31,709 nt of DNA, from positions 1-31,709 of IMG/VR virus record IMGVR_UViG_3300020435_000129, one strand, 5' to 3'. Positions within the stretch are counted from its first letter, which is position 1; each line of letters opens with the position of its first letter. Made by a program: the position numbers and the translations under genes. The DNA is from a virus. This document shows positions 4,779-25,323 of the stretch, piece by piece. Below the pieces are notes generated by a model that was not told the DNA's origin, made no database searches, and saw only the letters and a program-made list of their open reading frames with translations.

Positions 4779-5870
4779 TTATTTATCTACGTATCTCACG
4801 CAGTTTGTCTTTTCGTGTCCAAGCCTGATTGTTGCTTTTTCACTATCTGTAAGTTCATTGTTCATACGCAAATATTGATCTATAGTACACGGCACGCCAC
4901 GATACCAATACTCAATACCGGTTCTTCCACCGGCATAGGCAAACACTGCCGCCGGACCGTCGACGCGGTGTAAATATGTCAGGCTGTCATCTAAATAGCG
5001 CGAGTTGGATCTTACTAGCTTACCGTTTTTTGGCCAGTACGTGTGTAAAACTGGGTGTCCAGTTTCATCAACCGTCATCTCTAATAGCGCTGGTTTATCC
5101 GGCCTAAACGATTCATGCACCATGTAATAGTCTTGCGAGCTTAGATCAACCTTCCCGTTCTTTGCGTATAAACGGGTTTTTGTAGATATCTCGTCTTCGA
5201 ACCCTTCTCTTACCCTGTACTTCTCAACGATCAAAGCAGGAGCAGTATTGTTTCTTCCTACTAGTCCATTTTCTGCGTAGCATTTCTGATGGAACCGATT
5301 CCCTAATATACCAACACAATAACTACTCGTAAGAGCAGGCAGATCACCCGTTCTATGTAATAATCCATACTCTGCGTATATCTTTATATCGGTGTTCTCA
5401 AGCGGATATTCAGTAGATCTAGTGGTTATTACAAGCGCGGGACCTGATTCAGAGTGTAGCAATATCCCTCCCGCCGTTTCGTAAAACGACAAAAAAAGAT
5501 TGACACTGGTATGGAAGCACTTGATAGATATCTCCACCGCTTCATTTTTATGGTCTATTACTGCCTCGAGGTCTTCGTTAGTAGGTCGTTTCTTGTTTGT
5601 CGCATCGGAATACAATCTATTGGTTGTTGATACGAAAAGTTTTAGGGCGTTTTCCTTTGCTGCGGTAACCACCTCACTTACGCTATAGGTACCATCAGGT
5701 ACTAGTATTTCTGTTACTTCACTGAAAGCAGATATATGCACTGCATTCGATGCGTTGTTTTTGCCAGAAATGTCGAGTACGGTCTTTAACACAGGCAACA
5801 CATCCGGCACCGTAGAAGTGTTACGGATAGATGCGGGTATTTCAAATACTGACGCTAAGATACCTTTCAT
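4779..5870 (-). CDS. DGPA-repeat protein, copy 4
   Basis: This 363-residue protein is built from degenerate repeats of the form [Y-x-x-x-G-x-L-H-R-x-D-x-P-A-hydrophobic]. Examples are YAEYGLLHRTGDLPALTSS, YAENGLVGRNNTAPALIVE, FRPDKPALLEM and YLHRVDGPAAVF. The last unit ends YRGVPCTIDQYLRMN, followed by a helix with DSEKATIRLG. Three upstream neighbours share this repeat and closing helix. Repeats of this kind occur in large-virus and phage proteins with no assigned function as far as I know; each unit probably forms a beta hairpin, as in MORN or WG repeats. Its start overlaps the previous gene by 4 bases (ATGA). Confidence 0.75.
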   Translation of the reverse strand: MKGILASVFEIPASIRNTSTVPDVLPVLKTVLDISGKNNASNAVHISAFSEVTEILVPDGTYSVSEVVTAAKENALKLFVSTTNRLYSDATNKKRPTNEDLEAVIDHKNEAVEISIKCFHTSVNLFLSFYETAGGILLHSESGPALVITTRSTEYPLENTDIKIYAEYGLLHRTGDLPALTSSYCVGILGNRFHQKCYAENGLVGRNNTAPALIVEKYRVREGFEDEISTKTRLYAKNGKVDLSSQDYYMVHESFRPDKPALLEMTVDETGHPVLHTYWPKNGKLVRSNSRYLDDSLTYLHRVDGPAAVFAYAGGRTGIEYWYRGVPCTIDQYLRMNNELTDSEKATIRLGHEKTNCVRYVDK

Positions 5871-6862
5871 TGGGTCTCACCCAAAATTATCATAGCTTTT
5901 TCCTCATCACTTAAATTACATCGTTTTACGAACTCAGACGGTGATAACACCTCGTTCTTTATTATATAGTGGGTGTTTTGCTCTGTTATGAGCCCCGGAT
6001 AGTATTTAGACCCCACATCCATATTGTGATCAATTAGTAGCCAATAATTAGGATCACTGTCTATTGTTACCTTCCATCCGAATTTGTCATCTACATACGA
6101 GCACTCAGCGATCTCGGTAATGTCGCCGCTACGCACAGTGATAGACCTGAAGCCTTTTTTACTAAGCTTCTTATCTTCGATACTCACCGTAATATCTACT
6201 ATCTTTTTGTTATCTCTATCAGAATAAATTTTCGTCGTAAAAGCCGGGTGAATACCGTTGTCGTTTATGTCGCCGTTTTTGGCGTGTACCTTAATGCGGT
6301 TAGTGTAGTTGTTCAAATTCACATTACGCATTGTGTGTATAACAAGTGACGGTGTTTCGCCAAAATCATTTAAGAGACCGGTCGCTGTATCAATATAGAA
6401 TGTGGCATGAGTAAACCCGCGCTGGTCGCCGTTTATGTTCTTAATATCGCCTTTAAGATCAACACGAAACAGGTCGTGCGGAGTTACTTTTTCGGCACTA
6501 ATAGTGAACTCATACGTTGTTACTAATGAGTTTTCGTCCTGAGTTTCAAATTTACAATACGCAATCCCGTCTCTTACATGATTCACAGTCGGTCGGTATT
6601 GATCCATATCAATGTTATTCATGAATATGGTACTAGCGAAGTACGGCTTTATTTTGGTCTCAAAAGCCAGCCAGCACCCATTAATGACTCTACCGGACTC
6701 AACGTCTTCACCTCGTGCCAGGGCGCTAACGAACCCGAGTAACTTCGTCCCATAACGCTGCTCTTGTGTATACGCGTCTACAAGACGCGTCAAAACAACT
6801 GCTACTTGATTCACGTTTGAGCGCCCGACTACTACATTTCGTATATCAGGTAATTTAAGCAT
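5867..6862 (-). CDS. DGPA-repeat protein, copy 3 (most diverged)
   Basis: This 331-residue protein is the most eroded member of the four-gene family. Only two units are easily seen: IDTATGLLNDFGETPSLVIH and VHAKNGDINDNGIHPAFTTK, in which the His-Arg and Asp-Gly positions are altered. The closing helix is preserved (LSDEEKAMIILGETQ), which ties it to its neighbours. It overlaps the gene before it by 8 bases and the gene after it by 4, so all four are likely one transcription and translation unit. It could be a paralogue that has taken a new role. Function unknown. Confidence 0.72.
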   Translation of the reverse strand: MLKLPDIRNVVVGRSNVNQVAVVLTRLVDAYTQEQRYGTKLLGFVSALARGEDVESGRVINGCWLAFETKIKPYFASTIFMNNIDMDQYRPTVNHVRDGIAYCKFETQDENSLVTTYEFTISAEKVTPHDLFRVDLKGDIKNINGDQRGFTHATFYIDTATGLLNDFGETPSLVIHTMRNVNLNNYTNRIKVHAKNGDINDNGIHPAFTTKIYSDRDNKKIVDITVSIEDKKLSKKGFRSITVRSGDITEIAECSYVDDKFGWKVTIDSDPNYWLLIDHNMDVGSKYYPGLITEQNTHYIIKNEVLSPSEFVKRCNLSDEEKAMIILGETQ

Positions 6863-7922
6863 CGAGGTCTTCTCCCAGTACGTACAAACCCTTTTCGGCT
6901 TCTGTCATTTTTGAACGCATTAACCACTCTTCTTTACCGGACATTTTGTGGCCGTGCCTTGCATACACCCGCGTAACAGTCTTGCCCGCGTTGATACTTT
7001 TAATAGCAGGTCCGTACTCATTGTGTACCTCAAAATTATCATCTAAATAATAATGAGTCAGCACGTTCGTTGTCAGACAAACAAGCGCGGCTGTCGGTGT
7101 AGATGACCTAGGCTTGCCGTTCACAATATAAGAGGTGTATGCTTCTACTCTCTTAGCATTATAATCTATGGCAGGTCCATCTTCGTTGTGAATGTGGCCG
7201 TCACAGGCGTGAACTGACATAGTGAAGTCACTTGTCGTACCGTAAAGCGCAGGCTCGTCAGCGCTTCTGTGCAACTCTCCATCACGTGCGCATATAATAA
7301 AGTTTCGGTAACCTTCACGATCATTTAATACCAGCGCAGGGCGATCACCATCACGGTGTAATTTACCAAAACGATTCAAGTATATCGACAAGCGGGTATT
7401 AGTGCCTATCGACTGCCCTTTAGCAGCGCGTATAACCAGCGCCGGTTTGTCGTCTTCCGGCGTAACTATCTCGGCTCTATCAGTACAATAAAACTCAAGG
7501 TAGTGTGATCTGTATCCATCAAAGTCAGAATACATAGTGACTTGGTTTAAGCTTTCACCGACTCTTTTTACCTCGAAACGCTGAAGCCAATTAGCGTTAA
7601 GTCCCGTGTCGCCAAGCATAAACAATCCAGCAAACAACGAGTGTTCGCGCAGCGATTCGATAATACCTAGTGCTAAATCATTCACACCATTCAGGTACTC
7701 ATGGTCCTCGGTGTCTCCGCGATAGTGAAGACCAAGCGACTTTATCCTTCTCCCTATACCGCCGTCATTCGACTTGCGTAACAAATCCGAAATATTATCC
7801 ATATAAATAGCGCCGTCGTTTTTCAATCCCATATCCAACAAATGATGATCTATAGTGTTGGGTATTCCGGTACGGTAAAACGCGGGTGTGTATGAAACTA
7901 GCGCGAACTCTTCATATCTCAT
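6855..7922 (-). CDS. DGPA-repeat protein, copy 2
   Basis: This 355-residue protein has at least four recognisable units: LNRFGKLHRDGDRPALVLN, ARDGELHRSADEPALYG, ACDGHIHNEDGPAIDY and FEVHNEYGPAIKS. The closing segment reads MTEAEKGLYVLGEDLDA. The N terminus carries FYRTGIPNTIDHHLLDMG, a motif otherwise found at the C-terminal end of copy 4 (YRGVPCTIDQYLRMN), which suggests a past fusion or out-of-register recombination between copies. The start overlaps the previous gene's stop by 4 bases. Cytoplasmic, with no signal peptide or membrane helix. Confidence 0.75.
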   Translation of the reverse strand: MRYEEFALVSYTPAFYRTGIPNTIDHHLLDMGLKNDGAIYMDNISDLLRKSNDGGIGRRIKSLGLHYRGDTEDHEYLNGVNDLALGIIESLREHSLFAGLFMLGDTGLNANWLQRFEVKRVGESLNQVTMYSDFDGYRSHYLEFYCTDRAEIVTPEDDKPALVIRAAKGQSIGTNTRLSIYLNRFGKLHRDGDRPALVLNDREGYRNFIICARDGELHRSADEPALYGTTSDFTMSVHACDGHIHNEDGPAIDYNAKRVEAYTSYIVNGKPRSSTPTAALVCLTTNVLTHYYLDDNFEVHNEYGPAIKSINAGKTVTRVYARHGHKMSGKEEWLMRSKMTEAEKGLYVLGEDLDA

Positions 7923-8902
7923 GCAACCACCTCACCATGCGATAACGCAATCATTGTTTCTTCAGTTTTAGTCAATATGCCGAGTGAACACAATGCTTCG
8001 AATGTTGTTTCTCTACCATGTAGATAAAAGCTGGCGCTTCTAGGTGTTATAACGGCAGGTCCTACCGGATTATGCAAGTCGCCTGTCTTGTCAAAGTGGG
8101 TCACACCGGCTATACCAGATGAATCAACGTATGTCTCGGATACAACAAACCCGTGCGGCGTAGTATCTATAGTCATATTACAGTATTGGTCACTTCTAGA
8201 ACCCGACACCATCGTGCCGTTTTCAAAGAACAGCTTAAGTGTGTAATCACCTTTACTCATATAAATCGCGGGCGCATCACCTACGTTATGGAGTTTTCCG
8301 GCAACTGCGCAAACTTCAATATGAAGAATATATTCCTGTGTTAGGGGATCAAATATCTTGACCTCAATCGCAGGCCCGTCTAAACGGTGCGGCATGCCGT
8401 GCAACATGTGCACACTGTACTCGTAGTCAAAAACGTTAGACTTTCCTTCCAGACAATGGAAAAATATAGCATGGACCGCAGGGCCGTCTGTTTTGTGCAA
8501 GTGATTATTATCGTCTACTTGTATGGCAACCTTACCGATTGCTAAGGCTTCTGGACGTGACCCGCTATTGTTTGGTCCTCCCTTGCGCCAGTGGAAAAAG
8601 CTACGGAAAACCTCGCCGCCAGGTATGTCCGTTACTTCTTCTGCATCACATACTATATCGTACCTAACATCGGTCGCTTCAGTGATAATATCTTCTAATA
8701 CATAAGCGATCCATTGTCGGTATACATCAGTGCCTTGGGAAAGTTTGTCCTGGAGGCTTGTATCAAGCACCCACCACATTCCTTTTGACAGGAATTTTTT
8801 ACTAACTGATTCGTAGTTTATAACGGTATACAACGGGGCAGCCTCGCCTATTAAATCGATAATAGGATCAGCCACAAATATCGGTTCTGACATTTTAATC
8901 AT
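7919..8902 (-). CDS. DGPA-repeat protein, copy 1 (first in the unit)
   Basis: This 327-residue protein has units such as DDNNHLHKTDGPAVHAIF, LHGMPHRLDGPAIEV, AGKLHNVGDAPAIYMS and KTGDLHNPVGPAVITP. The final unit ends FYLHGRETTFEALCSLG, with a closing helix KTEETMIALS. The first 120 residues lack repeats and differ from the other copies. A CTATAAAAG element precedes the ATG at 8902. A second in-frame ATG at 8893 (MSEPIF) is an alternative start; neither has a strong Shine-Dalgarno sequence. Function unknown. Confidence 0.75.
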   Translation of the reverse strand: MIKMSEPIFVADPIIDLIGEAAPLYTVINYESVSKKFLSKGMWWVLDTSLQDKLSQGTDVYRQWIAYVLEDIITEATDVRYDIVCDAEEVTDIPGGEVFRSFFHWRKGGPNNSGSRPEALAIGKVAIQVDDNNHLHKTDGPAVHAIFFHCLEGKSNVFDYEYSVHMLHGMPHRLDGPAIEVKIFDPLTQEYILHIEVCAVAGKLHNVGDAPAIYMSKGDYTLKLFFENGTMVSGSRSDQYCNMTIDTTPHGFVVSETYVDSSGIAGVTHFDKTGDLHNPVGPAVITPRSASFYLHGRETTFEALCSLGILTKTEETMIALSHGEVVA

Positions 8903-8993: not shown

Positions 8994-9021
8994 GAAAAAG
9001 CGCCCTTTATATGAGCGCTTT
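8994..9021 (-). terminator. Hairpin terminator after the 55-residue gene
   Basis: AAAGCGC (8997-9003) and GCGCTTT (9015-9021) form a 7-bp stem with an 11-base loop. Read on the minus strand, the stem runs into five T residues, the form of an intrinsic terminator. It ends the transcript of the 9035-9202 gene just before the repeat-gene cluster, so those genes probably need their own promoter. Confidence 0.7.
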
Positions 9022-9591: not shown

Positions 9592-10710
9592 TTTTATTTT
9601 GGATGCCAAATCTTTCATGAAGTTTTCAGGCACACGTTTATCGATCTCACCAATAACGTAAGATTCAAGTTCTGTTTCTTGCGGTGCCGCCTGGCGTGTC
9701 TTACCAGCGATCCAGCTCGTAGTCCACGGCAGCGGGTTAGCTTGGCCCGGTGAATACGGACTGTTAAGTTGAATGGCACGCATACGATTATGGCCAATCC
9801 ACTCAACATAATTACATAAAAGACCTTCAGTTAAGCCTATCATCGAGCCTTCTTCAAACAGGAACTTAGCCCATTCTTTCTCTTGCTCGATGGCCTCAAC
9901 GAACAGCGCATTACACTCGTCGCGAGTTTCTTCACGTATTTTTGCAAAGTCCGGATCTTCTTTAGGCAGTGTCTTAATTGCGTTCTGGGTGAACATTAAG
10001 TGAATGTTTTCGTCACGACAAATGAACTTAATGACTTTGGCGTTGCCTTCCATTTTCTTTTGTTCAGCGAATGCCCATGAGCATGCAAACGACACATAAA
10101 AACGAATACCTTCAAGCGCGTTTACTGCATTAAGTGCCATCCATAATGACTTCTTGTGCTCATAAAGACTGAGCTTATCATCATAACCGTGAACGCGCAC
10201 ATAACAATTGTTATAGTCAAGCACATCGTAATACTTGGCAATTGATTTAGCACAATCAACAATTGGCTGGATATTATTAATACCGTCAAACACTTCGCCT
10301 GGATCAGAATACACGTTACGGATAATGTGCGAGTACGATCTGTTATGGATAGACTCAAAGAAACTCCACGTCTCGATAAATGTTTCTGCTTCAGGCAAGG
10401 TAACAACCGGCAAGAACACCAAGTTAGGCGAGCGTCCTTGGATTGAATCTAGCAGAATTTGTCTGCGCAAGTTATACGTGAAGATACGTTGCTCAGCCGG
10501 TGTGAGCTTCTTAAAGTCACGGACGTCTTTGCTTAAGTCAACTTCTTCCGGCTGCCAAAAGTAGCCAACTTGTTGTTCAGTCATGCGCTGAACTGTACTG
10601 TATCTGATTTTATCGTACCGCGCAACTGTTACGCCGTCGTTATCTGCATCCAGAAACGTGTTGCACTGAACGTTGGATTTTACGTTGTCGAGGTTATATA
10701 CTGACTTCAT
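9586..10710 (-). CDS. nrdB: Ribonucleotide reductase class Ia, beta subunit
   Basis: This 374-residue protein carries all di-iron ligands and the radical tyrosine of NrdB. They are D88 (LLDSIQG), E119 and H122 with Y126 (FESIHNRSY), E200 (NALE), and E234 and H237 (RDENIH). The length is close to T4 NrdB (388). With NrdA it reduces ribonucleoside diphosphates to deoxy forms for phage DNA synthesis in the cytoplasm; the beta subunit holds the tyrosyl radical. The start overlaps the inserted gene upstream by 4 bases, so it is translated from the nrdA transcript. Confidence 0.97.
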   Translation of the reverse strand: MKSVYNLDNVKSNVQCNTFLDADNDGVTVARYDKIRYSTVQRMTEQQVGYFWQPEEVDLSKDVRDFKKLTPAEQRIFTYNLRRQILLDSIQGRSPNLVFLPVVTLPEAETFIETWSFFESIHNRSYSHIIRNVYSDPGEVFDGINNIQPIVDCAKSIAKYYDVLDYNNCYVRVHGYDDKLSLYEHKKSLWMALNAVNALEGIRFYVSFACSWAFAEQKKMEGNAKVIKFICRDENIHLMFTQNAIKTLPKEDPDFAKIREETRDECNALFVEAIEQEKEWAKFLFEEGSMIGLTEGLLCNYVEWIGHNRMRAIQLNSPYSPGQANPLPWTTSWIAGKTRQAAPQETELESYVIGEIDKRVPENFMKDLASKIKL

Positions 10711-11597
10711 TTACTCTTCCAAATGTATCTATCTTCATGTTGCATGAACCCGCGGTTCTCCCAGGCTTGCACATTGTCTTTGTAAGGGTTCAAGATTAAA
10801 CTAATTTCTTTAGGGAAAAAAGTTGCCTTAAAGTATTCAGTGATGCGAGTTATTGCGGCATCTACGTGTCTGTCTACCTTTATTGCTTTATTTATAATGC
10901 GCCACTTCCCTTGCGCTTCATTTTCGTAGTCAAAAAGCACAGCGGCGATAAGCTCAGTGCCGCCATACAGTCCTATACAAGTCTTCCCAACAGTAGAGTC
11001 ATCAAAACTATACTTGTTGAAAAAGCTTCTGTATAAACCGACAGGCACACTAACTACCTTAATGGAGTTAGGATGCACATGACCCTTATGAGCCCCGTAT
11101 TCTCTGTTTATGAAGCTCATAGACAGCGAATTCTTCTTATCCCAGTCGTACTCACTCACATGCAAGTACCCAAGCGCAGGTTTAGCGGATATGCCGCGGT
11201 AGTTGCCTTGCTTATAGCCGACTTTATTTTCGTCTATAACTATGTTTTCATCACCTATTAATCGACGCATATATGCGACAATTTGCTCGAAATAAGGCAA
11301 AGTAATCTTTTCTCTAACTTCCTTATCAAGAATGTCACTAATAGGCTCGCTAGGCGTATTACACACATCACCGCCGCAGTACTTCGAATAGCCACGGCCA
11401 GACCACTTAGCGTGTTTGTCGCAATCGTCACATAACACCGCTCCGTAGTTTTCGTTTATTACATGCCATTTCCTTTGAGTCCAGGTCGCACTCTCCGGTA
11501 AGAACGGAGTTGCCATGAGCAACTCCTCCTGCATGTTTTTATTGGCCGCACTTCCCAGCTCTTTGGCTGTCATATTGGATAGTGCTTCAATATTCAT
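10707..11597 (-). CDS. Cysteine-cluster protein between nrdA and nrdB, possible homing-endonuclease relative
   Basis: This 296-residue protein starts at the ATG overlapping the nrdA stop (TAATG), with AAGGA 11 bases upstream; an ATG 12 bases earlier has no such spacing. Around residue 55 it has CDDCDKHAKW followed by YSKYCGGDVC, a likely zinc finger of the kind that opens many phage free-standing endonucleases. The last 100 residues (GLYGGTELIAAVLFDYEN, then NPYKDNVQAWENRGFMQHE) resemble the N-acetyltransferase-like domain found at the end of Hef/VSR-type endonuclease-related proteins. No catalytic nuclease motif is clear. The position between nrdA and nrdB is a known site for mobile endonucleases in T4-like phages. 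Function uncertain. Confidence 0.6.
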   Translation of the reverse strand: MNIEALSNMTAKELGSAANKNMQEELLMATPFLPESATWTQRKWHVINENYGAVLCDDCDKHAKWSGRGYSKYCGGDVCNTPSEPISDILDKEVREKITLPYFEQIVAYMRRLIGDENIVIDENKVGYKQGNYRGISAKPALGYLHVSEYDWDKKNSLSMSFINREYGAHKGHVHPNSIKVVSVPVGLYRSFFNKYSFDDSTVGKTCIGLYGGTELIAAVLFDYENEAQGKWRIINKAIKVDRHVDAAITRITEYFKATFFPKEISLILNPYKDNVQAWENRGFMQHEDRYIWKSK

Positions 11598-13936
11598 TAC
11601 AGTACACATCCTTCACAGTCATCGTCGTCGATAATCTCGACCGGTAACGGCTCTTCTACGGTGTCTTTCTTCTCGGTGCCGTCGCCTTCGTTTGCGTCAT
11701 ACGTGTTCGCGTAATACAACGTCTTAATACCGTGAGAATAGGTGAAGTACAAGTCTTCGATCAACGTAGTGAGTGGTATTTTACTCTTCATCTCGCCGCC
11801 GTTTGCATCAAGTGTTTTGAAGTGTAACGGGTTATAACTTGTGTTGGCAGATATAGTCTGGTCCATATAGCGCTGCAACACAGCCATAATAGACAAGTAC
11901 CCACGCGGCGACTCTTGATCCCATAACAGTTCGTACTTGTTTTTGTACTTACTGTACTCAGGCACTACTTGTTTAAATACACCATGCTTGCTTGACTTTT
12001 CACTAACAAAACCACGCGGTGGTTCAACACCATTAGTAGCATTAATTAGCTGGCTAGAAGACTCGCTCGGCATACATGCCATCATCGCCGCATTACGAAC
12101 GCCGTGCTCTTTCATATCAGCACGTAACGACTCCCAGTCCATGCGCAAGTTCAAAGGCACCAAGTCATTGACATTTTTATGCGCAGTTTCCCACGGGAAT
12201 AGTCCCTGACCGTATTTGGTCTCGTGCGACAATTCACACGCGCCTTTCTCTTTAGCAAGCTGAACAGAAGCTTTAATGATGTAGAAGCTCATTGCTTCCA
12301 TATACTCGTCGACTAGCTCTAGCGCTGACTCTTGCGTATACCCGGTGCCGTTCTTGGCAAGGAAGTAGGCTAAGTTGTTGATACCTATACCCAAAGTCCT
12401 AAACTCTCTGGTAGAAAGCTCAGCTTGAATAGCCGGATAATTTTGGTACGATAATAACGCGTCAAGACTACGAACAGCTAATTCACAAGGTTTTTCAAAG
12501 TCTTCAGGCTTATTAATTACGCCCCAGTTAATTGCCGATAGCGTACATAGTGCAATGCGGCCTGATTCATCATGTAGTGACTCAAAAGGCTTAGTAGGCA
12601 ACGTAATCTCAGCACACAAGTTAGACATAGTCACAGGGTGTTTGGTTTGATCAAACGAGCTATGAGTATTACAGTGGTCGATATTCTGCAAGTAAATTCG
12701 ACCAGTGTTTTGTCTTTCATCTAGAAACTGCGACATCAACTCATACGCGTTAACTTTGCGCTTGTACGCAACTTTAGGTGACTTTTCTAACTCACTGTAA
12801 AGCTTGGCAAATGCATCGTTATCGCCTGAGTAAAACGTGTCCCATAACTGCGGCACTTCACTTGAGTTAAACAAGGTAACATCTTGCCCGGCTAGTGCAC
12901 GTTCATATATTAGCTTGTTAAACTGAATACCGTAGTCTACGTGGCGAACACGGCTTTCTTCAGTCCCTTTGTTGTTTTTAGCAACAAGTAGGTTTTCTAC
13001 TTCACCATGGAAGTAAGGATAATACACTGTGGCAGAACCACCGCGTACACCGCCCTGCGAACAAGACTTAAGTGCTGCCTGGAAATACTTAAGGAACGGA
13101 ATAACGCCGGTATGTTCAACATCACCGCCTCGCACTTTAGTACCAACTGGGCGAATGCGTCCAATATTAATACCAATGCCTGCTTTCTGTGAAACATAGT
13201 TTACGATGGCAGACGACGTCGCGTTAATCGAATCCAAACTATCTGCTGACTCAATAAGTACACAAGAACTGAACTGCTTTTCGCGTGTTCTGGCGCCCGC
13301 TAGAACCGGTGTCGGCACACTAATCTTAAATTTACTCAACGCATCGTAGTACTCTTTAACAAACTTCATACGGGTGGATGCGGGGTAATCATGGAACAGG
13401 GTAGCAGCGATCAACACATATGCCACCTGCGGGGTTTCAAAGTGTTCTTCTTTCACTCGATCCTGTGCCAGATACTTACCTAACCACTGCCCCATGCCAG
13501 CGTAACTGATATCATAGTCACGATCATGCTTGATGATTTTGTTAAGATAATTTAACTCCTCGTCACTGTACCACTCTTTGAGTTCTTCAGTGTACCATCC
13601 TAGGGTAATGTTGCGCTCGACAATCTTACGCAAGTGCCACGGTTCAGGCTGACCGTATACTTCTTTACGTAAGTTAAAGTTCACTAACTTACTCGCAACG
13701 TATTGGTAGTTACTGTCTTCAGGGGTGATCAAATCAGCTGCGGTTTTAGTTAGCGTTTTATGAATCGCTTGTGATTCCATCCCATCGTAGAAGTAAAGCT
13801 TTGATTTAAGTTCTATTTGTGATGGCGAAACACCGGTTAAGCCGTTACATGCCCACTGTACTACTTTGTGAATTTTCTCGATATTGAAGGGCTCGAGTGA
13901 ACCGTCACGCTTCTTAATGCGGATCTCTTCTGTCAT
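11597..13936 (-). CDS. nrdA: Ribonucleotide reductase class Ia, alpha (catalytic) subunit
   Basis: This 779-residue protein starts at the ATG at 13936 (MTEEIRIKKRDGS); an 18-codon in-frame extension upstream overlaps the previous gene and is probably not used. An ATP-cone occupies about residues 1-95, so allosteric activity control is likely kept. Catalytic residues are C225 (FSSCVLIE), N439, C441 and E443 (NLCAEITLPT) and C464 (ALCTLSAIN). The radical-transfer tyrosine pair is in LYYANTYD, and the C-terminal redox pair is CEGC (C774, C777), spaced by two residues rather than the four of the E. coli enzyme. It pairs with NrdB encoded two genes downstream. Confidence 0.97.
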   Translation of the reverse strand: MTEEIRIKKRDGSLEPFNIEKIHKVVQWACNGLTGVSPSQIELKSKLYFYDGMESQAIHKTLTKTAADLITPEDSNYQYVASKLVNFNLRKEVYGQPEPWHLRKIVERNITLGWYTEELKEWYSDEELNYLNKIIKHDRDYDISYAGMGQWLGKYLAQDRVKEEHFETPQVAYVLIAATLFHDYPASTRMKFVKEYYDALSKFKISVPTPVLAGARTREKQFSSCVLIESADSLDSINATSSAIVNYVSQKAGIGINIGRIRPVGTKVRGGDVEHTGVIPFLKYFQAALKSCSQGGVRGGSATVYYPYFHGEVENLLVAKNNKGTEESRVRHVDYGIQFNKLIYERALAGQDVTLFNSSEVPQLWDTFYSGDNDAFAKLYSELEKSPKVAYKRKVNAYELMSQFLDERQNTGRIYLQNIDHCNTHSSFDQTKHPVTMSNLCAEITLPTKPFESLHDESGRIALCTLSAINWGVINKPEDFEKPCELAVRSLDALLSYQNYPAIQAELSTREFRTLGIGINNLAYFLAKNGTGYTQESALELVDEYMEAMSFYIIKASVQLAKEKGACELSHETKYGQGLFPWETAHKNVNDLVPLNLRMDWESLRADMKEHGVRNAAMMACMPSESSSQLINATNGVEPPRGFVSEKSSKHGVFKQVVPEYSKYKNKYELLWDQESPRGYLSIMAVLQRYMDQTISANTSYNPLHFKTLDANGGEMKSKIPLTTLIEDLYFTYSHGIKTLYYANTYDANEGDGTEKKDTVEEPLPVEIIDDDDCEGCVL

Positions 13937-16100: not shown

Positions 16101-17189
16101 TCACCAACTTATTATTATCTTTAGTGTGTTGAGTGTTTTCGGATTGGTTACTACATTAACAGTAAATTTTGCAGCCTCTAAAATACTTATAAACCTGTAT
16201 ACAAAGTCTCTTTCATGGGACTTCACAGGGCTCCTGTATGCTTGCCAGTAAGGTGTAGATGTTGGCGTGCTAACATTTACAACAGGCTCTAAAATAGCTG
16301 GTGCAGGGTTTGTATGGAACTCACTCGGGGTAACGGTAATTGTATCGTGTACTGAATACTCGCTGCCACCCGACAACAAGGTAACACCTATAATTTCACC
16401 CGCAGCCGAAAACAAGGGCTTAAACTTAGCGCCGGAGCCTGTACGGCTAGACATGCGCACACGGCACTGGATAGGGCTGTAACCAGAGCCACCACTCTTT
16501 ACCGCTATCGACTTGATACGGCCGTTTTCAGTGTGTATGGCACCTGCGGCAAACCCTTTGCCTGCCGGGTGGGAAACAACAATGCTAGGTAAGCGTGTCG
16601 AGTATCCTGTACCAGGGGCAGATACACTTACATTTACTATGCCTCCCTGAGAATCAACCTCAGATATCTGCGCTGATGCGCCGAAACCAGTCGGGTGATC
16701 TATAATGATATCGGAACCAACCGTGTAGCCGGTTCCTGCTTTAGTGGGCACCACCTTTAGTACTGCGCCGGTATCACTAGCGACCACGGTAAACTCGGCT
16801 GACGTGTGCTCGTCCTCGGTAAAACGGACTGGCGGGTAGGCTTTAGCTATTACAGGGTAATAGCCTGAACCAGGCTCTACTACATCTACTCTAGTTATAG
16901 CGCCCTGGCTATCAACGTTCACTTTAAACTTGGCGCCATATCCGATAGAGTGTTCGACTCGTACGTTAGCAGGGATAGGCGACAAGTTCTTGCCGCCACT
17001 TAAGATGTTAACTGATTCAACAAAACCAGATGTTTCAGTGAGGTGCGTGCCTGAGTCAATTACTACGGAACGGTTTCCTGCATGATGTGCATCGAGTATC
17101 ATTTTCTCAGCAACATTCAAGTCATCCATCAACATCGCACTATACGGCTTTACATTGTCAAGCTCGTCAGCACTGAAGCACAGGCGCAT
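16101..17189 (-). CDS. Virion protein with GSGY repeats
   Basis: This 362-residue protein has five repeats of the form G-x-I-x-x-V-x-V-x-x-x-G-(S/T)-G-Y, about 45 residues apart. They are: GAITRVDVVEPGSGYY, GAVLKVVPTKAGTGYTV, GGIVNVSVSAPGTGYST, GRIKSIAVKSGGSGYSP and GEIIGVTLLSGGSEYSV. The last copy has lost the GxGY core. This repeat is common in phage and other secreted structural proteins and forms a beta stalk or decoration; T4-like cyanophages carry it in tail or baseplate proteins. GAGG lies six bases before the ATG. A C-terminal 60-residue part (SPVKSHERDF onward) is not repetitive. Confidence 0.65.
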   Translation of the reverse strand: MRLCFSADELDNVKPYSAMLMDDLNVAEKMILDAHHAGNRSVVIDSGTHLTETSGFVESVNILSGGKNLSPIPANVRVEHSIGYGAKFKVNVDSQGAITRVDVVEPGSGYYPVIAKAYPPVRFTEDEHTSAEFTVVASDTGAVLKVVPTKAGTGYTVGSDIIIDHPTGFGASAQISEVDSQGGIVNVSVSAPGTGYSTRLPSIVVSHPAGKGFAAGAIHTENGRIKSIAVKSGGSGYSPIQCRVRMSSRTGSGAKFKPLFSAAGEIIGVTLLSGGSEYSVHDTITVTPSEFHTNPAPAILEPVVNVSTPTSTPYWQAYRSPVKSHERDFVYRFISILEAAKFTVNVVTNPKTLNTLKIIISW

Positions 17190-23253: not shown

Positions 23254-25323
23254 TTATCCAAAAGCGGTTTCTATTCTGTTGCCCAGTACCACACGATAAA
23301 GCTGAACTGATTCACTTGCTGCCTTAGTAATACGTAACAGGGCTTCAAGCTTTTGTTTTGCTTCACAGAATGCGACCAAAGTGCGACTATGTATACAGTC
23401 GTCAGCGTAGGAAATCTCAACGCCATTTGGAATGGTTATCGACAAATCCTTATAGGTATTTAGGTACTCACCAAGCATAATTTGATGACTACGAAGCGCA
23501 CGAGTAAGGATGTCTGCAAACTTTTCTTTTACGTAAACCACGTCAAGGCTACCCTCGATAAGTTTAAGGAACTTTTCGTAGGTTTCTGCTTGTGAACGGA
23601 TCACACGTTTGGCCGAAATAGTAGCATAACGAGTATCACCTAGTATATAGGCAAGTTCTAACATTGTCTTACCGACTATCGAATCGTTCTTGCTGTTTAA
23701 TACAGTAGACTTGATCTCTTCTCGCTTTTGCCATATAAAGTTCTTAGCTTCCAAGAATGTGGATTTGTCGACTATCTTAAACATGAAGCCGTCAGGGTGC
23801 TTAATTACTATGCCTTCAATCCAGCTATCTTCCCTATCAGAGAACTTACTCGTACTAGAATGCACAAGCGCAGTCAGAAGATGATTCTTTACTTTTTGTT
23901 TTGCTTCTTTGATTTTATCACGGCACGGGTTTCTCGAGTCTTTGATTTTCTGCTTCAAAGAATTCCAAGTATCTTGATCAGTATCTTCAGGGCGTTTGCT
24001 GTTCAATTTAAAGTTCGCAACTTCGCTTACTGTCATGCCCGTCTCAGCATCTGTCTCGCCTAGAATCGCGTTATATTGCTCGATTGCAGTACTTATTTCA
24101 CTTTTCGCTAAGGACTCTTGTAAGAACTCCTGCGACATTTGCGGTACTTCACTAAACATAACTTTAGATGTTCGCTTTTCCTTTATCACAGTAGTACCGT
24201 CTCTACTAACCAAACATTCATGTTCGACGCTAGTGATGCCGTTTGAATCGTATATCTCCACTACTTTAGGCATTATATGCGGGTCGCCTTTTAACTGTCT
24301 TAATAACACAATATCATTCACAGCATCATCGTAACGGATTACGTTGGGTATCTCGTCGTAAAGTACTTCTACTTCTATCTCAAAGTCGCCCAGTAATGAT
24401 ACCTCGCTTTCGCAAGCTAGCAATGCGCGGTGGGCAAATATGCGATAATTGCTGCTGAAGTTCTCGGGATGATCATCAACAGCATAAACTTTATCCAGGT
24501 TCCCGAACACAGTATACATTTGGCCGTTTTCTACGCCAAATCGCAGGTTGCTGCCGTCTAGTTTCTCAGTCACAACACAGAGCTCCAAATCATTAATTGC
24601 TCTGTAAAACAACGTATCGTCTAAATCTTCTATATGAGTGATCCCGCGCTTCTTTTCAACTGGCGCGGCGTGTTCATTAATCAGTGAATGTTTATATTCA
24701 GGACTCAGTGTACTTTGTCGAATAATGCTACGGTATATACGTGGCGCGGATTCAAACATAGTAGTCACGACGCCCACTGCCTCGGATAACACCATATACG
24801 CGGTTGGTAGTAATGAACTACCGTAAAGCGAAAGTATTTCACCTAACAATAATTGCCAATAATCTTGTACCTGCGGGGTGGATGCGTGTTTGTACGGGTA
24901 ATTTGCTAACGAAAGCATAGTAATAAACGCACACTCGTCGCGTTGTGATAGAACCAGTTCTGGGTTAAGGTCGGGATCACCGAATCCTAGTTGGCCGTCG
25001 TGTGTTCGGATCACGTCTGAGTCTAATCCCGTCATTATAACGTACTTGAAAGCTCGGTTCGCTTCATTACTAAGAAAGTACGAGGACGATACATAACGTA
25101 GAGTTGAGAGGACAGAAGTCTCTGGCTGTGCTGATAATTGCACACATAGGTCCACCACATCTTTGACAGACACGTTGCTTGACGCAGCAACTTGGTTAAT
25201 CATCTGCAGGTTAGTAGTAACAGCCTGTTCTATAATCTCGCCAGCTTTGCGTGATATAGACGTATCACGTGGTTCTAAAACCTGCAAAAACTTACCGGCC
25301 AAGGCGTTTTTTTCTTTTTTCAT
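23254..25323 (-). CDS. Ligase-like covalent nucleotidyltransferase, 689 residues
   Basis: Motif I of DNA/RNA ligases and capping enzymes is EKLDGSNLRFG, with the nucleotide-accepting K254. GDFEIEVEV (312-320) fits motif III/IIIa, EGIVIK (503-508) fits motif IV, and FKIVDK (515-520) fits motif V. A 180-residue insert separates motifs III and IV, and a 235-residue N-terminal part and a helical C-terminal part (540-689) are unlike known ligases. It could join or repair nucleic acid, or be a virion-associated relative such as the KWDG-type proteins of T4-like phages. AAAGG lies nine bases before the start. Confidence 0.78.
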   Translation of the reverse strand: MKKEKNALAGKFLQVLEPRDTSISRKAGEIIEQAVTTNLQMINQVAASSNVSVKDVVDLCVQLSAQPETSVLSTLRYVSSSYFLSNEANRAFKYVIMTGLDSDVIRTHDGQLGFGDPDLNPELVLSQRDECAFITMLSLANYPYKHASTPQVQDYWQLLLGEILSLYGSSLLPTAYMVLSEAVGVVTTMFESAPRIYRSIIRQSTLSPEYKHSLINEHAAPVEKKRGITHIEDLDDTLFYRAINDLELCVVTEKLDGSNLRFGVENGQMYTVFGNLDKVYAVDDHPENFSSNYRIFAHRALLACESEVSLLGDFEIEVEVLYDEIPNVIRYDDAVNDIVLLRQLKGDPHIMPKVVEIYDSNGITSVEHECLVSRDGTTVIKEKRTSKVMFSEVPQMSQEFLQESLAKSEISTAIEQYNAILGETDAETGMTVSEVANFKLNSKRPEDTDQDTWNSLKQKIKDSRNPCRDKIKEAKQKVKNHLLTALVHSSTSKFSDREDSWIEGIVIKHPDGFMFKIVDKSTFLEAKNFIWQKREEIKSTVLNSKNDSIVGKTMLELAYILGDTRYATISAKRVIRSQAETYEKFLKLIEGSLDVVYVKEKFADILTRALRSHQIMLGEYLNTYKDLSITIPNGVEISYADDCIHSRTLVAFCEAKQKLEALLRITKAASESVQLYRVVLGNRIETAFG

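What the first reader, a model, noticed from the sequence alone, without database searches (positions are those of the whole stretch)
4779..8902. Four tandem paralogous genes built from degenerate LHRxDGPA repeats
Four overlapping genes (327, 355, 331 and 363 residues) make up 13% of the window. All carry a YxxxGxLHRxDGPA-type unit and a closing helix with the pattern (D/E)-E/S-E-K-x-x-I-x-LG. Conservation falls from strong (7919-8902, 6855-7922) to nearly erased (5867-6862), as in a family expanded by duplication and then diversified. The repeat is known in large-virus and phage proteins of unknown function. A phage keeping four diverging copies suggests binding diversity, for instance against varied host targets.
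Basis: partly seen in the sequence, partly recalled or inferred. Interest (0 to 1): 0.78.

Follow-up and report, generated by a model that had tools for sequence, protein, structure and literature searches.

The report
Tandem LHRxDGPA-repeat paralogues in jumbo phage
A marine giant phage carries four side-by-side sister genes built on a repeat common in phages (plus a fifth, and probably a second array of 16 distant kin), each with a variable beta-rich body and a kept C-terminal cap; this suggests a kit of protein binders whose targets are unknown.

Summary
Genes A-D (7919-8902, 6855-7922, 5867-6862, 4779-5870, all minus strand, overlapping) are true paralogues: profiles that leave one gene out still find it first among about 400 phage proteins and 2,000 shuffles. 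C has no canonical LHRxDGPA unit but keeps the C-terminal two-helix cap. The window is 99.99% identical to part of a 310-kb marine contig; a sister species keeps all four genes. Beyond the finding: a fifth paralogue lies elsewhere in both genomes, and a 16-gene tandem array (226,981-239,891 in the sister) shares at least the closing tail in about six members. These 21 genes evolve about three times faster at protein level than other genes (omega 0.17-0.21 against 0.067), but all stay below 1, so positive selection is not shown. The repeat is common in phages: 24 of 96 motif-selected loci carry three or more such genes, often with a tail better kept than the body. A model of D's end (pLDDT 76) shows beta strands plus two helices and matches no solved fold. 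Best reading: soluble protein-binding adaptors with variable bodies and a constant cap, probably not late genes. Targets are unknown; virion head proteins remain a serious rival.

The parts
7919..8902 (-). Gene A (327 aa), first of the block; LHR-type units at residues 135, 171, 204, 276
   Evidence: 90% identical orthologue in sister phage G003
6855..7922 (-). Gene B (355 aa); units at residues 188, 217, 244, 299
   Evidence: 83% identical in G003
5867..6862 (-). Gene C (331 aa); no canonical unit, cap retained
   Evidence: leave-one-out E = 4.5e-6; 75% identical in G003, fastest of the four
4779..5870 (-). Gene D (363 aa); units at residues 138, 171, 300, closest to the classic repeat
   Evidence: 88% identical in G003
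8054..8500 (-). Repeat region of A
   Evidence: motif positions
7005..7361 (-). Repeat region of B
   Evidence: motif positions
6245..6373 (-). Degenerate unit remnants of C (GLLNDFGETPS, GDINDNGIHPA)
4950..5459 (-). Repeat region of D
   Evidence: motif positions
7931..8035 (-). C-terminal cap of A (strand, helix, helix)
   Evidence: cap profile
6867..6971 (-). C-terminal cap of B
   Evidence: cap profile
5870..5974 (-). C-terminal cap of C
   Evidence: cap profile; tail leave-one-out rank 1
4809..4916 (-). C-terminal cap of D; AlphaFold2 shows two helices at pLDDT about 78-89
8994..9021 (-). Terminator-like hairpin (AAAGCGC...GCGCTTT, then T run) upstream of A
   Evidence: read by eye; its loop is longer than the scan allows, so no tool supports it

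Best explanation
A-D are a co-oriented, translationally overlapping block of diverged LHRxDGPA-repeat proteins of a ~310-kb marine jumbo myovirus-like phage, part of a larger paralogous family (a fifth dispersed copy and very probably a 16-gene second array). Each protein has a fast-evolving beta-rich body and a conserved C-terminal strand-helix-helix cap. Shown: paralogy, cap, fifth copy, fast but constrained evolution, and similar arrays with conserved tails in unrelated phages. Inferred: they are soluble intracellular binding proteins; the variable beta-hairpin surface binds different protein targets (host, defence or competing-phage factors), while the cap seals the end of the repeat stack and may dock on a common partner; duplication and divergence widen the target range. 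No late promoter motif lies before the block, which suggests early or middle expression.
For: Leave-one-out profiles link all five genes. A cap profile without the LHR motif retrieves LHR proteins of other phages at their C-termini (L149 at 5.7e-5; most of the leading non-family hits carry LHR although only 1.9% of ORFs do). Within several arrays of other phages the last 13 residues are better kept than the body (L205 0.85 against 0.37, L224 0.69 against 0.44, L225 0.61 against 0.39, L213 0.48 against 0.19). Omega is threefold above other genes at equal dS. AlphaFold2 of D residues 260-353: strands then two helices, pLDDT 75.8. No enzyme family matches in Pfam, PHROGs or NCBIfam. The CTAAATA late-type motif, found 38 nt before the tail-sheath gene, is absent at that spacing before A, the K array and the fifth gene.
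Against: No target or partner is known; no site is shown to be under positive selection; the full-length model of B failed (pLDDT 37.7); Foldseek finds no significant fold match. Expression timing is inferred only from a missing motif. The raised omega fits relaxed constraint equally well. The hairpin-repeat reading rests on a 94-residue fragment.
Confidence: 0.45

Rival explanations
1. Virion head-associated or ejected proteins. Giant phages are known to keep about 20 tandem paralogues as head proteins (SPN3US paralog family B, gp138-154 and others; PMC5694885). A-D and the second array could be such proteins, with the cap acting as a packaging signal.
For: Similar number, gene size and tandem layout in SPN3US. 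A conserved C-terminal element fits a targeting signal. The genes are non-enzymatic and fast-evolving.
Against: No sequence link between A-E or their cap and SPN3US gp138-154 (best E about 0.5; the best BLAST hit of any array gene is 0.017). No late promoter motif at the usual spacing before A, the array or the fifth gene. Neighbours of A-D are nrdA/B and rIIA, not head genes.
Confidence: 0.25
2. Antitoxin- or immunity-like decoys that bind host toxins or abortive-infection effectors, as suggested for MORN_2/YwqK proteins.
For: A consensus of the classic unit matches MORN_2 at 2e-4; YwqK/MORN2 proteins are described as possible antitoxins (PMC12940168). Arrays with variable bodies fit many toxins.
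Against: A-E match neither MORN_2 nor DUF6745 nor any NCBIfam model. No toxin-like neighbour was recognised in the window.
Confidence: 0.13
3. Redundant duplicates under relaxed constraint, kept by amplification and drift, with no target diversity.
For: Omega of 0.08-0.37 is raised but below 1; C has lost its repeat units; dS is raised in B and C, which points to allele exchange.
Against: All 21 genes are intact and syntenic in two species; caps are conserved; purifying selection is clear in every gene.
Confidence: 0.12
4. Substrate adaptors for a phage-encoded ClpAPS protease: the body recruits a target, the cap docks on Clp.
For: The phage encodes ClpA, ClpP and ClpS. The fifth paralogue lies directly upstream of clpS, and clpA lies upstream of the 16-gene array on the same strand.
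Against: ClpP occurs in 10 of 19 LHR phages and 5 of 8 control phages, ClpS in 4 of 19 and 2 of 8, so there is no association. In A-D the tail motif is not at the very C-terminus.
Confidence: 0.05

Closest known systems
Phage LHRxDGPA-repeat proteins (Celeribacter phage P12053L gene 09, Agrobacterium phage Atu_ph07, many IMG/VR contigs); Pfam DUF6745 covers part of them
   Same: Unit motif, a closing strand-helix element, tandem gene arrays
   Different: Classic units repeat every 23 aa and are regular; here spacing is 27-129 aa, units are degenerate, proteins are 2-3 times longer with long unit-free N-terminal parts; DUF6745 itself does not match
MORN_2 (PF07661) / YwqK-type proteins
   Same: Short beta-hairpin-like repeats of about 20-23 residues; weak match of the classic unit consensus
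   Different: No match of the window genes or of either phage genome to the model
SPN3US paralog family B (20 head proteins, mostly one tandem array)
   Same: About 20 diverged paralogues in tandem in a giant phage
   Different: No sequence or cap similarity; no late-type promoter motif at the usual spacing here
Poxvirus ankyrin-PRANC proteins (analogy from general knowledge, not tested)
   Same: Variable repeat body with a constant C-terminal docking element
   Different: Different repeat, different hosts; docking is not shown here

Membership tests
LHRxDGPA repeat proteins of phages | Multiple LHRxDGPA-type units | tested here: met
   A 4, B 4, D 3 units against a shuffle mean near 0.01; not met by C alone
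LHRxDGPA repeat proteins of phages | Regular 23-residue unit spacing (typical of classic members, not universal) | tested here: not met
   Classic spacing is 23 in 250 cases; here 27-129. They are therefore filed as a diverged variant, not as classic members
LHRxDGPA repeat proteins of phages | Closing strand-helix cap, in some phages with a second helix ending in Phi-x-Phi-x-[YW]-[GAS] | tested here: met
   Cap profile; tail motif in 19 of 203 LHR ORFs against 4 of 1,894 others, p = 1.5e-16, from 5 loci
LHRxDGPA repeat proteins of phages | Profile similarity to classic members | tested here: met
   Family profile (A-D, two species) finds P12053L gene 09 at 7e-4 and Atu_ph07 at 0.006 among 9,731 ORFs, and LHR ORFs down to 1.6e-13
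Pfam DUF6745 | Score above the curated cut-off | tested here: not met
   passed only by classic proteins L226 and L227
MORN_2 / YwqK | Match to PF07661 | tested here: not met
SPN3US paralog family B | Sequence similarity to gp138-154 | tested here: not met
SPN3US paralog family B | Presence in the virion head | not testable with these tools
   needs mass spectrometry
Second array K01-K16 as same family as A-E | Shared C-terminal tail | tested here: inconclusive
   Strong for K06 and K14, good for K07, K10, K12, K16, not shown for the other ten

The most novel reading that the evidence does not exclude
A general phage strategy: tandem arrays of proteins with variable LHR-type beta bodies and an array-constant C-terminal cap that docks on one common partner, giving the phage a set of interchangeable adaptors against many cellular targets; this jumbo phage carries about 21 of them in two arrays, most of which have lost the recognisable repeat.
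Probability: 0.2. Interest if true: 0.8.

Novelty: new variant of a known kind. Interest (0 to 1): 0.52.

Why it matters
LHRxDGPA repeats are spread through phage genomes with no known function (papers searched: none on the motif or on DUF6745). The cap-and-array architecture gives a way to recognise members that have lost the motif, links two seemingly unrelated arrays in one giant phage, and makes a test possible: find what the constant cap binds and what the variable bodies bind.

Tried and rejected
Nucleotide search with the four-gene block and tblastn of annotated phages with A, B, the fifth gene and K02: no match. Full-length AlphaFold2 of B with 8 sequences: pLDDT 37.7, not used. Foldseek of the D fragment against PDB and BFVD: nothing significant. 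PDB sequence search: none. Clp-adaptor idea: no co-occurrence. Positive selection: omega below 1 in every family gene. Late expression: motif not found before these genes. SPN3US family B: no sequence link. A shared-tail model for all 16 K genes: only about six pass. Sigma-70 scan: no excess over shuffles. Searches with a synthetic unit consensus were used only as a lead, since I wrote that consensus myself.

Full report
What the window is. It is an IMG/VR virus record, 99.99% identical over 30.8 kb to contig IMGVR_UViG_3300020277_000001 (G001, 310,672 bp; the aligned stretch held here covers window 1-30788), and 91.7% identical to a sister phage, IMGVR_UViG_3300020380_000001 (G003, 306,500 bp); a third contig (G002, 82 kb) gives the same scores as G003 for A-C and seems to be the same species as G003. 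That the samples are marine is my reading of the record numbers, not a tool result. Window neighbours are an rIIA-like gene, nrdA and nrdB with an HNH gene between them, an exonuclease, a DnaB-like helicase and a primase. G003 has a tail sheath, so this is a jumbo phage with a contractile tail. No close relative is in the annotated phage collection.

The observation. Coordinates and lengths are as stated. The genes overlap by 4, 8 and 4 nt, which suggests coupled translation. In order of transcription I call them A (7919-8902), B (6855-7922), C (5867-6862) and D (4779-5870). A, B and D carry 4, 4 and 3 LH[RNKS]..PA units; none of 5,000 shuffles reached this, and with the tighter pattern no other protein of the sister genome has one. 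C has none, only degenerate traces.

Are they paralogues? Yes. Pairwise profile comparison is weak but real: B-D 5e-5, A-B 3e-4, C-D 1.7e-3, A-D 2.4e-3; 6 of 10 pairs among A-E are below 0.01 against 2 of 525 control pairs. The stronger test leaves one gene out: a profile of the other four finds A at 1.4e-3, B at 4e-12, C at 4.5e-6, D at 8e-9 and the fifth gene at 1.5e-6, always first among untrained proteins.

A fifth paralogue, E, lies far away in both genomes (G003 259,943-260,746; G001 about 263,556-264,392; 95% identical) and was found by the family profile. It carries the cap LSESELAMLRLNYG at its end.

The cap. All five end in a strand (often with a G), a short helix and a second helix of type L[ST]xxExAxxxL. 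A profile of the last 36 or so residues, without the LHR motif, was run on 13,744 ORFs, of which 257 (1.9%) carry LHR-like units. Beyond the family itself most leading hits are LHR proteins of other phages, at their C-termini: L149 (5.7e-5), L167, L142 (two genes), L185 and others. So cap and repeat go together in other phages, and C, which lost the repeat, is identified by the cap. AlphaFold2 on D residues 260-353 with 53 aligned relatives gave mean pLDDT 75.8, with strands followed by two helices, the cap at 78-89. Foldseek finds no significant match. The full-length model of B is useless.

A larger family. In G003, 16 overlapping genes of 218-315 aa form one array at 226,981-239,891; one of them, 238,302-239,033, had been missed by my ORF caller. 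A position-specific matrix made only from A-E tails was scored on about 400 C-termini: the best four untrained hits are all in this array (K16, K14, K06, K07), above every one of 3,029 internal windows. Leave-one-out tail profiles rank K06 and K14 first and K07, K12, K16, K10 third to sixth among the untrained C-termini and internal fragments; A itself ranks only 37th, and the remaining K genes are not recovered. Profile pairs A-E against K below 0.01: 5 of 80 against 2 of 525 controls, mostly co-terminal. I therefore claim kinship of about six K genes by their tail, suspect the rest from the layout, and do not claim that their bodies are homologous.

Evolution. Between the two species the family evolves fast: median omega 0.206 (K array) and 0.175 (A-E) against 0.067 in 72 other genes of at least 150 aa (Mann-Whitney p = 9e-9); dS does not differ (p = 0.75), so this is not a mutation-rate effect. 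All values are below 1 (highest 0.37), so there is no gene-level positive selection. B and C have raised dS (0.58 and 0.82 against about 0.34), which suggests exchange with a diverged allele.

Other phages. These hold 239 ORFs with the unit; the spacing is 23 aa in 250 cases. Of 96 loci with a complete LHR gene, 24 carry three or more. In several arrays the last 13 residues are the best-kept part: L205 0.85 against 0.37 for residues 36-70 from the end, L224 0.69 against 0.44, L225 0.61 against 0.39, L213 0.48 against 0.19; recent arrays such as L171 and L222 are similar throughout, and several loci show no conservation. The tail motif Phi-x-Phi-x-[YW]-[GAS] occurs at the end of 19 of 203 LHR ORFs and 4 of 1,894 others (p = 1.5e-16), though from only five loci, so the counts are not independent. 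These loci were chosen by the motif, so frequencies do not apply to phages in general.

Expression. A motif [AG]CTAAATA is enriched about 13-fold upstream of genes and sits mostly 25-40 nt before the start codon; the tail-sheath gene has it, as do other very long genes. It resembles the late promoter of T4-like phages (general knowledge). It is not found at this spacing before A, the K array or E. This suggests, but does not show, that the family is not late.

Mechanism. With no enzyme signature, a beta-rich variable body, a constant cap and amplification, the likeliest role is protein binding with many targets. The cap may only seal the stack or may dock on a partner; the conserved tail within arrays of other phages favours some constant role. 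Head or ejected proteins are the main rival, because SPN3US keeps 20 head paralogues mostly in one tandem array (PMC5694885), although those have no similarity to A-E. A link to the phage's own ClpAPS looked attractive because E lies next to clpS, but Clp genes are as common in control phages.

Known or new. The repeat is known to databases as part of DUF6745, which classic phage proteins match above cut-off while A-E do not, and is distantly like MORN_2. No held paper mentions the motif or DUF6745. The array-with-constant-cap pattern and the hidden larger family seem undescribed in the held literature, but only a few searches were made.

Noticed in passing
L032:6981-19891 (G003 226,981-239,891); G001 about 284,450-297,360: Array of 16 overlapping genes of 218-315 aa, many ending in an LxLxYG-type helix like A-E; folded into the report as the K array.
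   Followed up: partly
L033 (G003 244,326-246,581; 256,771-257,337; 259,410-259,721): The phage encodes its own ClpA, ClpP and ClpS; clpS lies directly downstream of the fifth paralogue.
   Followed up: partly
G003 genome, e.g. L022:12543-12550 before the tail-sheath gene: Strong [AG]CTAAATA motif 25-40 nt before many start codons: probable late promoter of this phage group.
   Followed up: partly
window 10707-11609: HNH endonuclease-like gene between nrdB and nrdA, overlapping both; probable homing element.
   Followed up: no
window 16101-17189: 362-aa protein matching baseplate and virion structural families, placed among replication genes.
   Followed up: no
window 23254-25323: 689-aa gene with dS 0.83 but omega 0.05 between the two phages, like B and C a possible site of allele exchange.
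   Followed up: no
G003 96,396-100,348: Second stretch of fast-evolving genes of about 190-240 aa (omega 0.15-0.34), with one paralogous pair at 98,602 and 99,172.
   Followed up: no
L032/L033 (G003 239,888-240,481 and 242,426-242,932): By eye, a lytic-transglycosylase-like gene and a macro-domain-like gene directly upstream of the 16-gene array.
   Followed up: no
phages of L169 and L133 (G011, G004): Their ClpP matches read through one in-frame TAG and one TAA; recoding, an insertion or a frame artefact is possible.
   Followed up: no
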